NCBI GenBank assembly: GCA_030656615.1
Contig: JAUSOY010000085.1
Span: forward strand, 1 to 37,319
Length of the DNA: 37,319 nucleotides
Origin: Bacteroidales bacterium
GTDB lineage: Bacteria > Bacteroidota > Bacteroidia > Bacteroidales > TTA-H9
Direction of reading: 5' to 3'
Every line of letters begins with the position of its first letter. The stretch's first letter is position 1. A program made the translations under genes and the position numbers. The notes below the pieces were generated by a model. That model did not search any database. It saw only the letters and a program-made list of their open reading frames with translations, and was not told the DNA's origin. Shown one piece after another: positions 143 through 2,897 of the stretch.

Positions 143-1528
143 TTATTTTGAGAGGGATATAACTAAATCCTTATAAATTCGGCCTCTTTCCTCAAAATTT
201 TTGAATTGGTCATAACTCGCAGCAGCTGGTGAAAGCAAACAAATGCCCCCGACCGGAGTACTTTTTATGGCCATTGCTATCATAGCCGAAAAATCGTCGA
301 AGTAATATAAACGGGAATGAATATCAGCATTAATTGGGAATTGTGAAATAATTCGTTTGCCGGCATCTCCGGTATATAAAACGATCCCTTTAAATGAAGA
401 TAATAAATAATCTGTAAGAAGCGTATAATCAATTCCCCGGTCATAACCTCCGATAATTAAAGTTGAGACATCTCCCAGAGCCTCCAATGCCTGAAGGGTT
501 GCTTCCGGAATGGTAGCTATGCTATCATTATAAAAATGCTTGCCCTGAATACAACCGACATATTCCATTCGATGCTCCAAAGGTGTAAATTCAGTAATGT
601 TTTTTACCGCCTCTTGAGCATTTATTCCATAGGCTTGAATTGCAAGCAAAGCCGCCTGAACATTCAGCAAATTATGTCTTCCTGGTAATACTTTATTAAC
701 GGTTTCGATTGAACATATATCATTTTCAACTCCAGCGATTCGATGAACAATTTTTCCCTGCTTCACAAAAGAGCCATCCTGGCCATGATCAGTATTTGAA
801 AAAGGCAGAAGACCAGACTCGATCGGATTATCGTTTAACAACGATTGAATTAATGAATCTTTGTAATGATAAATGAAAAAATCGCTGGGTTTTTGGTTCT
901 TCGCTATATTCCATTTGGCCATTTGATAGTCGAGAAACGACGGGTAATGATCAAGATGTTCCTGAAACAAGTTCAATAAAACAGCAATATGTGGTGATGC
1001 CGGTGAATTTTCAAGCTGATGTGACGAAATTTCAAGAACAATTGTATTGTTATTCAATTCTTTGGAAACAATTTCATACACGGGTACGCCAATATTTCCT
1101 GCCAGAGTCACTGGTTTTTGCATCCCGGAAATCAAAAATGCTATCAGGCTGGATGTGGTACTTTTCCCTTTTGTACCTGTTATACCAATTATCTGTTGCG
1201 AGTATGAATCGAGAAACAAACCCATTTGCGAAATAACAATGGCTCCTTTTTTCAAAGGTCCTAACTTCATTGACGATATTCCGGGTGATTTTATAATCAA
1301 ATCAAATTCATTAACAGCTTTTAAGTAATTATCTCCCGTAATGAGTTCAATTTTAGGATTATCTTTAAACAATTCATCATTAATAATTTCCTCGTTCATG
1401 TCTGCTACAGCAAACCGAGGAATACGAACATCAGCAAGCAGAAAATATGTCATTGCCCTACCTTCTTTGCCAAATCCCAAAACAAGGATTTTCTTTTTTT
1501 CTGTAATTGCCCTTTCAAGAATCTCCAT
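143..1528 (-). CDS. murD: UDP-N-acetylmuramoyl-L-alanine--glutamate ligase (MurD family, probably L-Glu-specific MurD2)
   Basis: A cytoplasmic Mur ligase of 461 residues, the usual MurD length. It adds glutamate to UDP-MurNAc-L-Ala using ATP. Visible features are an N-terminal Rossmann-like glycine motif (LGFGKEG, about residues 17-23), the Mur-ligase P-loop GITGTKGKST (115-124), the ExSSHQLE segment of the central domain and an EHRME segment in the last third. The start codon overlaps the end of the upstream gene by 14 bp, so the two are translationally coupled. That upstream gene looks like murL. In Xanthomonas, MurL works with MurD2, which ligates L-Glu rather than D-Glu, and the product is then epimerised. 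I therefore infer that this enzyme is MurD2-like; the sequence alone does not prove its stereospecificity. Confidence 0.9.
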   Translation of the reverse strand: MEILERAITEKKKILVLGFGKEGRAMTYFLLADVRIPRFAVADMNEEIINDELFKDNPKIELITGDNYLKAVNEFDLIIKSPGISSMKLGPLKKGAIVISQMGLFLDSYSQQIIGITGTKGKSTTSSLIAFLISGMQKPVTLAGNIGVPVYEIVSKELNNNTIVLEISSHQLENSPASPHIAVLLNLFQEHLDHYPSFLDYQMAKWNIAKNQKPSDFFIYHYKDSLIQSLLNDNPIESGLLPFSNTDHGQDGSFVKQGKIVHRIAGVENDICSIETVNKVLPGRHNLLNVQAALLAIQAYGINAQEAVKNITEFTPLEHRMEYVGCIQGKHFYNDSIATIPEATLQALEALGDVSTLIIGGYDRGIDYTLLTDYLLSSFKGIVLYTGDAGKRIISQFPINADIHSRLYYFDDFSAMIAMAIKSTPVGGICLLSPAAASYDQFKNFEERGRIYKDLVISLSK

Positions 1529-2897
1529 GCAAAGCGTTTTTTATCAGATTAATAAATCGGGGTTCCAGAAAGTGGGTTCCAGCCAGATCGGATACCTGAG
1601 TAATATCCGATAATTGTTTTCCGGCCAAATTATATTCCTCCGAATCGATATAATGTTTTAGTAAAACCTCTGAAGAATCAGAATATCGTAAAATATATCG
1701 ATGAAGTGCTTCATTAACCTCTTCCACAGTTCCGACACATTCAAAAGGCTTTACAGGATTTTTACCAGTAAGTTCATCCATTTCCTTCATCATAAATTCC
1801 TTTTCAAACATATTTGTTCCAAAGGCTTTTTTCAGTTTATCGATTGGCATAAATGGACTTAAAATGATATATGCAAAAAGACATTTAGGACATTTTCCGC
1901 ACCATTTGTCTTCTTTACTTCCGGCATTACAGCTCTTAAATATTTGAAAATATTGATCATAACGAGCAAATAGTGATGCGATTTGTAATTCACTCAAAGG
2001 CCGTAAAAAACTAAAGTACTCAATATCGCTACAAACGAATTCTTTATAATAGTCCCTGAAATCTGATTCAAATTCAAATGATTTGGAATATTGATGATTA
2101 ACTCCGGAAGTGCGAGTGGTTGATTCATTGGCAGAAGATTCATTTGACAAGGCAACGTAACGGATTCCATGTAATGACGAAACCAAAAGAGTTACAAAGG
2201 CCAATAATGCTGAAAATGGAGTATGGCCATTTAAAAAACCACGCTCATTTAATCCAATCAAAGCCGGATCGATTTTTCGGTAGGCCAACAAACAACGATC
2301 CATTCCAATACCAGAAGCTTCAACACATTGAAGACTTGCTGGTCGAGGATTCAGAATAAAGGGCTGAATATTAAAATGCGATTTAAGGAGTTCAAGACTT
2401 ACAACACTATCCTTTCCTCCGCCTACAGGAACTAGAATTTTATCCGCATCAGTTTTAAGGCTTGATTTTGCTAAAATATCACCCTGGCTCTGTATTGTCA
2501 TAAAATCAGACATTTCGGCCGGAATATTATTCAAATAAAAAAACTCACCAAGTCCCTGAAAATAAAGGTTTTTCCACCATAAAATCTGGTTTTCAGTTAG
2601 CGACACGGGCAAAATAATAAGCTTAGGAGAGCATACACATTTCCAATAACTAATCAATTCGACCATACCAATATGGAAAACCAGATTCCGGATTATAGAA
2701 TCCGTAGCGTAGTTTTTCTTTATGTCCTCAGTAATTGGGATAGTTATTTCAGGATAAAAAACTTCTAAGCCCGGTACTTCAAAATGATATCTGATTTGTA
2801 ACTCATTATCAGTAAATAAGTAATGAAAGTCGTGATAAACAAACTCCGGAAAATCGAAAATCAACTGCTTATATTTTTCAAAATTATTCACCATCAT
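1515..2897 (-). CDS. murL: UDP-N-acetylmuramoyl-L-alanyl-L-glutamate epimerase (MurL-like)
   Basis: A 460-residue soluble protein with a PP-loop ATPase signature VGGGKDS (158-164), a GHTPFSA motif (224-230), SNESSANE (251-258) and a cysteine cluster C333/C336/C339 (CGKCPKC). These traits and the length fit the MurL family, which uses ATP and Mg2+ to epimerise the terminal L-Glu of UDP-MurNAc-L-Ala-L-Glu to D-Glu. The strongest support is context: it sits directly upstream of, and overlaps by 14 bp, a MurD-family ligase. MurL removes the need for glutamate racemase MurI. The start is either of two adjacent ATGs (2897 or 2894). A minus-strand TACTTTTG box (2953-2960) lies about 55 bp upstream. 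The alternative is another PP-loop enzyme such as a tRNA thiolase or asparagine-synthase-like protein, but those do not usually pair with murD. Confidence 0.72.
   Translation of the reverse strand: MMVNNFEKYKQLIFDFPEFVYHDFHYLFTDNELQIRYHFEVPGLEVFYPEITIPITEDIKKNYATDSIIRNLVFHIGMVELISYWKCVCSPKLIILPVSLTENQILWWKNLYFQGLGEFFYLNNIPAEMSDFMTIQSQGDILAKSSLKTDADKILVPVGGGKDSVVSLELLKSHFNIQPFILNPRPASLQCVEASGIGMDRCLLAYRKIDPALIGLNERGFLNGHTPFSALLAFVTLLVSSLHGIRYVALSNESSANESTTRTSGVNHQYSKSFEFESDFRDYYKEFVCSDIEYFSFLRPLSELQIASLFARYDQYFQIFKSCNAGSKEDKWCGKCPKCLFAYIILSPFMPIDKLKKAFGTNMFEKEFMMKEMDELTGKNPVKPFECVGTVEEVNEALHRYILRYSDSSEVLLKHYIDSEEYNLAGKQLSDITQVSDLAGTHFLEPRFINLIKNALHGDS

What the first reader, a model, noticed from the sequence alone, without database searches (positions are those of the whole stretch)
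143..2897. murL-murD pair: an epimerase route to D-glutamate in a Bacteroidota genome
The MurD ligase overlaps by 14 bp a PP-loop protein with GGGKDS, GHTPFSA, SNESSANE and CxxCxxC motifs, which I identify as MurL. In Xanthomonas, MurD2 adds L-Glu and MurL epimerises it. If right, this organism makes peptidoglycan without needing glutamate racemase, with consequences for drug targets and for how D-Glu is supplied.
Basis: partly seen in the sequence, partly recalled or inferred. Interest (0 to 1): 0.7.

Follow-up and report, generated by a model that had tools for sequence, protein, structure and literature searches.

The report
Epimerase route to cell-wall D-glutamate
An uncultured bacterium, apparently of the order Bacteroidales, carries a two-enzyme route that adds ordinary L-glutamate to the cell-wall precursor and then flips it to the D form; the route is known from Xanthomonas relatives, some alphaproteobacteria and some actinobacteria, and here it seems to replace the usual glutamate racemase across a large branch of the order.

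Summary
Two genes overlapping by 14 bp encode a MurL homologue (NF041275, E 1e-72, but 245 bits against a cut-off of 700) and a MurD2-type ligase. The ligase has the Glu/Arg pair of Xanthomonas MurD2 and groups with it (100/98).

Of 149 genomes of the order, 54 have MurL, 89 MurI, none both, six neither; on a tree this is about three switches. The pair is adjacent or fused in 45 of 52 loci and also occurs in Bacillota, including Lachnospiraceae. AlphaFold gives MurL a QueC/QatC-like PP-loop fold, which fits adenylation of the glutamyl carboxylate.

Unexpected: in 21 of the 54 MurL genomes the dcw murD is reduced to its C-terminal domain, mostly from a conserved internal methionine, with 10-11 changes between full and short forms on the tree. 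The window's genome keeps the whole gene. This suggests a non-catalytic job for MurD's third domain. No activity was measured.

The parts
1515..2897 (-). [quoted passage not shown]
   Evidence: NF041275 244.8 bits, E 1.2e-72, residues 28-446; 27% identity to X. sacchari MurL, 62 of 87 columns conserved in the order hold the same residue there
143..1528 (-). murD2-type gene, 461 aa: predicted UDP-MurNAc-L-alanine:L-glutamate ligase
   Evidence: TIGR01087 317 bits; groups with X. sacchari MurD2, 100/98
1515..1528 (-). 14-bp overlap of the two reading frames (MurL stop TGA, MurD2 start ATG)
2406..2423 (-). MurL GGGKDS, PP-loop (ATP pyrophosphatase) motif
   Evidence: 51-52 of 52 homologues at each position
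2208..2228 (-). MurL GHTPFSA, probable substrate-site motif (GHIPVTA in X. sacchari)
   Evidence: role inferred
2124..2147 (-). MurL SNESSANE motif
   Evidence: role unknown
1881..1931 (-). MurL four invariant cysteines C323, C333, C336, C339; probable QueC-like zinc site
   Evidence: 52 of 52 and invariant in the 40 rows of A2; zinc role inferred from the QueC-like fold and recall
959..961 (-). MurD2 Glu190 (E. coli Asp182, X. oryzae Glu197): L-Glu specificity residue
   Evidence: role from PMC8788868
518..520 (-). MurD2 Ile337 (E. coli Lys319, whose K319T change lets E. coli MurD accept L-Glu)
   Evidence: role from PMC8788868
437..439 (-). MurD2 Arg364 (E. coli Lys348, X. oryzae Arg358): L-Glu specificity residue
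   Evidence: role from PMC8788868

Best explanation
The pair is a working MurD2-MurL route. MurD2 (143-1528) joins L-glutamate to UDP-MurNAc-L-Ala with ATP. MurL (1515-2897) then inverts the terminal glutamate to D-glutamate, so D-Glu reaches peptidoglycan without free D-Glu and without MurI. MurL most likely works as a QueC/QatC-type PP-loop enzyme: it adenylates the alpha-carboxylate of the glutamate (ATP to AMP + PPi), the adenylate makes the alpha-proton acidic, the proton is removed and re-added from the other face, and the acyl-adenylate is hydrolysed. Shown here: gene pair, family, residues, fold prediction, no murI match and its distribution. Inferred: activity, direction and chemistry. 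The canonical MurD in the dcw cluster is kept beside it, either to use salvaged D-Glu or for a non-catalytic role.
For: NF041275 match E 1.2e-72, residues 28-446. MurL-MurD2 order and overlap as in X. sacchari. Window MurD2 has E/I/R at E. coli 182/319/348, as X. sacchari has; of 47 scorable MurD2s from MurL genomes of the order, 46 have E/R and 47 have I, against D/K/K in 55 of 55 dcw MurDs. MurD2s of X. sacchari, Bacteroidales and Bacillota form one clade, 100/98. murI 0 matches in the genome; MurL and MurI over cut-off never together in 149 genomes: 54, 89, 0 both, 6 neither. Adjacent or fused in 45 of 52 loci and in 73 of the 80 best named loci. 21 of 54 MurL genomes show only the C-terminal domain of dcw MurD, so MurD2 is their only full-length MurD where one was found. 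Fold: QatC Z 17.6, 324 aligned, 4.0 A; QueC Z 12.9.
Against: The score is far below the curated cut-off of the Xanthomonadales MurL model, 245 against 700 bits. Identity to X. sacchari proteins is only 27% (MurL) and 29.2% (MurD2), and MurD2 is as similar to the genome's own dcw MurD, 29.5%. A complete D-Glu-type MurD sits in the same genome. A class IV aminotransferase (100 bits against a D-AAT cut-off of 277) and an Asp-racemase-family protein (176 bits, cut-off 93) exist, so a D-Glu source is not excluded. MurL/MurI exclusion reflects about 3 switches on the tree, not 54. Foldseek alone gives QatC only TM 0.38-0.41 (E 4.7e-5) and no other match under E 0.001. In 7 of 52 loci MurD2 is not beside MurL; G054 has MurL (one in-frame stop in the match) but no MurD over E 1e-70.
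Confidence: 0.86

Rival explanations
1. The dcw MurD makes the bulk of the peptidoglycan precursor from free D-Glu supplied by an unrecognised source (class IV aminotransferase, a moonlighting enzyme such as DapF, or salvage), and MurD2-MurL is a secondary or conditional route.
For: The dcw MurD is complete with D/K/K residues, as these are in 27 of 27 such MurL genomes. A class IV aminotransferase is present, and such genes are commoner where dcw MurD is full-length (13 of 29) than where it is truncated (3 of 21), two-sided p 0.032 (the E 1e-14 limit was set by me after seeing the list). Listed abstracts report a bifunctional ADC lyase/D-amino-acid transaminase (PMC8105722) and a DapF with Glu racemase activity (PMC5885031), seen as search listings only.
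Against: No murI over cut-off in any of 54 MurL genomes; 21 of 54 have lost the catalytic part of dcw MurD. The aminotransferase association is not tree-corrected: 4 supported independent pairs, too few to test. The class IV protein is far under the D-AAT cut-off.
Confidence: 0.09
2. murI is present but was missed because the genome is a draft (96.8% complete).
For: 90 contigs; completeness 96.84%.
Against: The two other sampled genomes of the same family also lack murI and have MurL; 0 of 54 MurL genomes have it over cut-off, while 89 of the 95 others do. 0 of 17 genomes reached through named MurL loci have it over cut-off; 9 have weak hits.
Confidence: 0.02
3. The 460-aa protein is a PP-loop enzyme of another function (QueC/QatC-like chemistry on another carboxylate) that merely resembles MurL.
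For: Low identity to Xanthomonas MurL; best fold match is QatC of a defence system; relatives without a listed murD nearby lie on Pseudonocardia plasmids.
Against: Tight linkage with an L-Glu-type MurD, including MurL-MurD2 fusions of 876 and 937 aa and 3 more; replacement pattern with murI; 62 of 87 conserved columns shared with X. sacchari MurL; no PADLOC match.
Confidence: 0.03

Closest known systems
MurD2-MurL pathway of Xanthomonas oryzae (XOO_1320/XOO_1319; PMC8788868, PMC5808125)
   Same: Gene pair (order and short overlap seen here in X. sacchari), E and R specificity residues, conserved MurL motifs, no murI
   Different: 27-29% identity to the X. sacchari proteins; Ala/Tyr instead of Pro/Phe at the two positions that did not change specificity in PMC8788868; complete canonical MurD kept in the same genome; phylum not among those named in what I read of the two papers
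Canonical MurD with MurI (dcw type)
   Same: Mur ligase family, core residues such as His183, Lys198, Arg302, Asp317
   Different: D182, K319, K348 replaced by E, I, R; no murI match in the genome
QueC / QatC / Cap9 PP-loop enzymes
   Same: Predicted fold (Z 12.9 QueC, 17.6 QatC, 11.7 Cap9), PP-loop motif; four-cysteine cluster (its presence in QueC is recalled)
   Different: Sequence similarity is marginal (Pfam QueC in 3 of 40 members, best E 0.0029); no deazapurine or defence context seen here

Membership tests
MurL (broad family) | Full-length HMM similarity to MurL | tested here: met
   NF041275 residues 28-446, E 1.2e-72
NCBIfam equivalog NF041275 MurL_Xanthmoales | Score over curated cut-off of 700 bits | tested here: not met
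   244.8 bits; 0 of 149 genomes of the order reach it. Filed as MurL in the broad sense, not as this equivalog
[quoted passage not shown]
   Needs enzyme assay
MurD2 | Glu and Arg at the E. coli Asp182/Lys348 positions | tested here: met
   Glu190 and Arg364
MurD2 | Common descent with Xanthomonas MurD2 | tested here: met
   23 MurD2 rows on one side of a branch, 100/98; X. sacchari and E. coli are long branches
MurD2 | L-Glu used in preference to D-Glu | not testable with these tools
   Needs enzyme assay
MurD2-MurL pathway | Genome lacks MurI and D-amino-acid transaminase | tested here: met
   murI no match; best Dat-like 99.9 bits against 277.45. A distant class IV aminotransferase remains possible as a source
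MurD2-MurL pathway | The two genes adjacent | tested here: met
   14-bp overlap; adjacent or fused in 45 of 52 loci in the order
PP-loop ATP pyrophosphatases (QueC/QatC-like) | Fold and loop motif | tested here: met
   AlphaFold pLDDT 90.8; QatC Z 17.6, QueC Z 12.9, though Foldseek TM for QatC is only 0.38-0.41; PP-loop stretch of TtuA matched by profile, E 0.0011

The most novel reading that the evidence does not exclude
MurD's C-terminal domain has a second, non-catalytic job in Bacteroidales, tied to its place between mraY and ftsW. Once MurD2-MurL took over catalysis, the first two domains became dispensable and were deleted repeatedly, perhaps ten times, each time sparing the same 180-residue domain from about the same internal methionine; in genomes like this one the whole gene is still kept for that job. 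The stand-alone domain ('mini-MurD') would be a scaffold or regulator of the MraY-MurG-FtsW assembly, possibly already made from an internal start in ordinary murD genes.
Probability: 0.35. Interest if true: 0.8.

Novelty: new variant of a known kind. Interest (0 to 1): 0.62.

Why it matters
If the activity is as inferred, the MurL route is not a speciality of Xanthomonas relatives and a few others but a main route of a large Bacteroidales branch and of some gut and rumen Bacillota. Racemase inhibitors would then miss these bacteria, and MurD2/MurL inhibitors would be less narrow-spectrum than proposed. It gives MurL a fold and a concrete mechanism to test. And the repeated reduction of dcw MurD to one domain is a natural experiment on whether Mur ligases have non-catalytic roles in the cell-wall machinery.

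Tried and rejected
murI missed through draft status: rejected, since relatives show the same absence. The TIGR00035 racemase-family protein (C68, 176 bits) as D-Glu source: unlikely, since it has Ser and Gly at the places taken as the catalytic cysteines (alignments; solved relatives there have Cys at the second place and varied letters at the first, two of them possibly mutants; the catalytic role is recalled). L010 is a branched-chain aminotransferase. dN/dS of mini-MurD: synonymous sites saturated, so only amino-acid identity of three same-genus pairs could be used. Phylum scan: 3 of 395 genomes hit, two of them short weak matches (E 1e-4 and 2.9e-4), so a real MurL only in the window's own genome; but the listed rows show only five other members of the order, and 372 rows are not listed. 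One search's literature terms mostly matched 'murder'; it told nothing. Pfam DUF6395 (PF19932) matches 31 of 40 MurLs weakly (best E 1.9e-4; window E 0.0019, below its cut-off); its function is unknown and I did not follow it. Rows below the QueC-like enzymes are mostly single-domain PP-loop matches.

Literature: MurL searched. PMC8788868 (parts 1 and 2 of 3 read) and PMC5808125 (passages) treat it. Six other papers that hold the word were opened at the passage (PMC7215955, PMC12039267, PMC11464490, PMC2650404, PMC10232435, PMC3328466): all use it for glutamate racemase, apparently MurI. No held paper has MurL together with Bacteroidales and peptidoglycan, or with Lachnospiraceae. Most subscription papers are not held, so this is not proof of absence from print. 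Truncated MurD was searched only, without a relevant paper.

Rows dropped: G052 (MurL fragment) and G148 (MurL locus not fetched) are not among the 52 MurLs; ligase hits under 100 bits were dropped and a ligase was called MurD2 if it scored over 250 bits against the window's, or lay cut beside murL; the second MurDs of G045 and G050 were not fetched; G052 and G095 were left out of the mini-MurD counts; the species tree has 95 of 149 genomes.
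Full report
WHAT IS THERE. Two reading frames lie at the left end of the contig (the window is the whole contig C38 of a 3.56-Mb, 90-contig draft genome, 96.8% complete): 1515-2897(-), 460 aa, and 143-1528(-), 461 aa, overlapping by 14 bp. The first matches NCBIfam NF041275 (MurL of Xanthomonadales) at 244.8 bits, E 1.2e-72, far over noise but below the curated cut-off of 700; Pfam at E 0.001 gives nothing and the PDB sequence search nothing meaningful. The second matches TIGR01087 murD at 317 bits (cut-off 212) and solved MurDs. The neighbours are a YqgE/AlgH gene and a threonylcarbamoyladenylate synthase gene on the other strand.

MURD2 CHARACTER. In X. oryzae MurD2, Glu197 and Arg358 (E. 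coli Asp182 and Lys348) set L-Glu specificity: the double change E197D/R358K switched it to D-Glu, and E. coli MurD K319T gained L-Glu use (PMC8788868, parts 1 and 2 of 3 read). The window ligase has Glu190, Ile337 and Arg364 at the three positions. X. sacchari MurD2 has E, I, R as well; the genome's own dcw MurD has D, K, K. From MurL genomes of the order I gathered 49 MurD2-type ligases (45 beside or fused to murL, 4 elsewhere). 47 could be scored for the 182/348 pair: 46 E/R and one D/R (G034); two are cut by contig ends. Ile stands at 319 in 47 of 47. dcw MurDs have D/K with K319 in 27 of 27 from MurL genomes and 28 of 28 from genomes without MurL (these 28 were the highest-scoring loci, not a random draw, and include G088 and G127, which lack both MurI and MurL). 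In 14 Bacillota MurD2s, I and R are in 14 of 14, and E in 9, D in 5. A tree of 43 MurD proteins puts all 23 MurD2s (X. sacchari, Bacteroidales, Bacillota) on one side of a branch, 100/98; X. sacchari and E. coli are long branches.

MURL. Identity to X. sacchari MurL is 27% over 437 columns, but of 87 columns conserved in at least 95% of the 52 MurLs of the order, 62 hold the same residue in X. sacchari. AlphaFold on 40 sequences gives pLDDT 90.8, pTM 0.91. By VIA-align the best solved match is QatC (Z 17.6, 324 residues, 4.0 A), then QueC (Z 12.9, 202 residues, 3.8 A; 12.4), Cap9 (11.7) and a series of PP-loop enzymes. Foldseek itself has one match under E 0.001, the same QatC (E 4.7e-5, TM 0.38 and 0.41). 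Sequence agrees weakly: a PP-loop stretch of TtuA at E 0.0011, Pfam QueC in 3 of 40 members and DUF6395 in 31 of 40, all weak. The reviews call MurL an enzyme without known domains that uses ATP, releases AMP and probably adenylates its substrate. A PP-loop fold is what such chemistry would need. Four invariant cysteines (323, 333, 336, 339) fit a QueC-like zinc site; that comparison rests on recall.

NO RACEMASE FOUND. TIGR00067 murI: no match at E 0.001 in the genome. D-amino-acid transaminase: best 99.9 bits against 277.45; that protein is a class IV aminotransferase of unclear kind, the other is ilvE. One PF01177 protein is a TIGR00035 amino-acid racemase (176 bits) with Ser and Gly at the places I take for the catalytic cysteines. 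In 149 genomes of the order, MurL is found in 54 (one, G052, a weak fragment), MurI over cut-off in 89, both in none, neither in 6. Ten MurL genomes have weak sub-cut-off TIGR00067 hits. The raw Fisher p of 3e-34 ignores kinship: on a tree of MraY plus FtsW for 95 of the 149 genomes the two states need only 3 (quick IQ-TREE) or 4 (FastTree) changes; in the former 49 of 51 MurL genomes fall in one clade of 50 rows. So this is one old replacement, stably kept, and about two others.

SPREAD. Of the 80, 70 have MurD2 beside MurL, 3 are fused to it, 7 have none in the flank. In the 149-genome sample, of 52 MurL loci read, 45 have MurD2 adjacent or fused, 2 of them fusions of 876 and 937 aa; 7 do not. 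Of 17 genomes reached through named loci (14 Bacillota, 3 Bacteroidota), none has murI over cut-off; 9 have weak hits. Of 10 Bacillota genomes searched for murD, 7 have one full MurD and 3 have two; none shows a C-terminal-only match.

THE SECOND MURD AND MINI-MURD. The window's genome keeps a complete murD between mraY and ftsW. All 28 genomes in which two MurDs pass E 1e-70 are MurL genomes. In the dcw slot of the 54 MurL genomes I find: a full-length murD in 27 (one, G012, lacks about the first 48 positions near a contig end); a murD cut by a contig end with its N-terminus present in 2 (G052, G095), and one cut at a contig start from residue 182 (G107); only the C-terminal domain in 21 (20 read and aligned, G005 by HMM coordinates alone); nothing found in 3 (G020, G077, G129). 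G015, which lacks both MurI and MurL, also has the short form. The 21 aligned short proteins (20 MurL genomes and G015) are 176-190 aa. In L164 the ORF begins 11 bp after the mraY stop and matches TIGR01087 positions 263-440. The alignment puts the first residue of 15 of 21 at 262-264 of the window genome's dcw MurD, where Met264 is shared by 49 of 55 full-length dcw MurDs; for the other 6 it places the start elsewhere and is unsure. Catalytic residues are eroding: K348 kept in 5 of 21, T321 in 12, S415 in 13, D317 in 21. Three same-genus pairs share 45-65% identity, within the range of FtsW, MurC and MurE of the same pairs (40-79%) and below MraY (65-84%), so the protein seems constrained; synonymous sites are saturated. 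Full-length and truncated forms need 10-11 changes on the tree. The count has no direction; I read it as repeated truncation because regrowth is unlikely, and many branches are weak. G034 (truncated) and G148 (full-length) belong to one genus code. Class IV aminotransferases with TIGR01121 E at most 1e-14 (limit set after seeing the list) occur in 13 of 29 genomes with full-length dcw MurD and 3 of 21 with the short form (p 0.032); the tree-aware test had too few pairs.

HOW IT PROBABLY WORKS. [quoted passage not shown] The overlap and the fusions suggest direct hand-over. The full-length dcw MurD could use D-Glu from salvage or a class IV transaminase, or be kept for its third domain. I cannot decide between these from sequence.

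VERDICT. The pathway is known; its place in Bacteroidales and Bacillota, the coexisting or truncated canonical MurD and the PP-loop assignment were not found described in the held library by my searches.

Noticed in passing
L159-L183 (dcw clusters of 20 MurL genomes and G015): murD between mraY and ftsW reduced to its C-terminal domain of 176-190 aa, apparently many times over.
   Followed up: partly
L128:1764-4394 and L138:1608-4421; L229, L238, L251: MurL-MurD2 fusion proteins of 876-975 aa.
   Followed up: partly
L156:3959-5359, L157:3971-5365: MurL-like genes annotated hypothetical on Pseudonocardia plasmids, beside a WD40-repeat gene and without a listed murD within 4 kb; function unknown.
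   Followed up: no
L158:3890-5092: An unverified 'Bacteriophage sp.' scaffold from human faeces (MT836755) encodes a MurL 46% identical to the window's; probably a bacterial contig.
   Followed up: no
L182 (genome G015): A 98% complete 2.1-Mb genome with mraY, murE, ftsW, murG but no match to MurI or MurL and no full-length MurD, only the short form; no murC was labelled in its dcw stretch.
   Followed up: partly
L123 (genome G054): MurL match with one in-frame stop, no MurD over E 1e-70 in the genome, short dcw MurD; possibly a decaying or badly assembled case.
   Followed up: no
window 1515-2897: Best structural match of MurL is QatC of the qatABCD anti-phage system, which suggests MurL and QatC share a QueC-like ancestor.
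   Followed up: partly
window 1515-2897: Pfam DUF6395 matches 31 of 40 MurL relatives weakly; perhaps a related family of unknown function.
   Followed up: no
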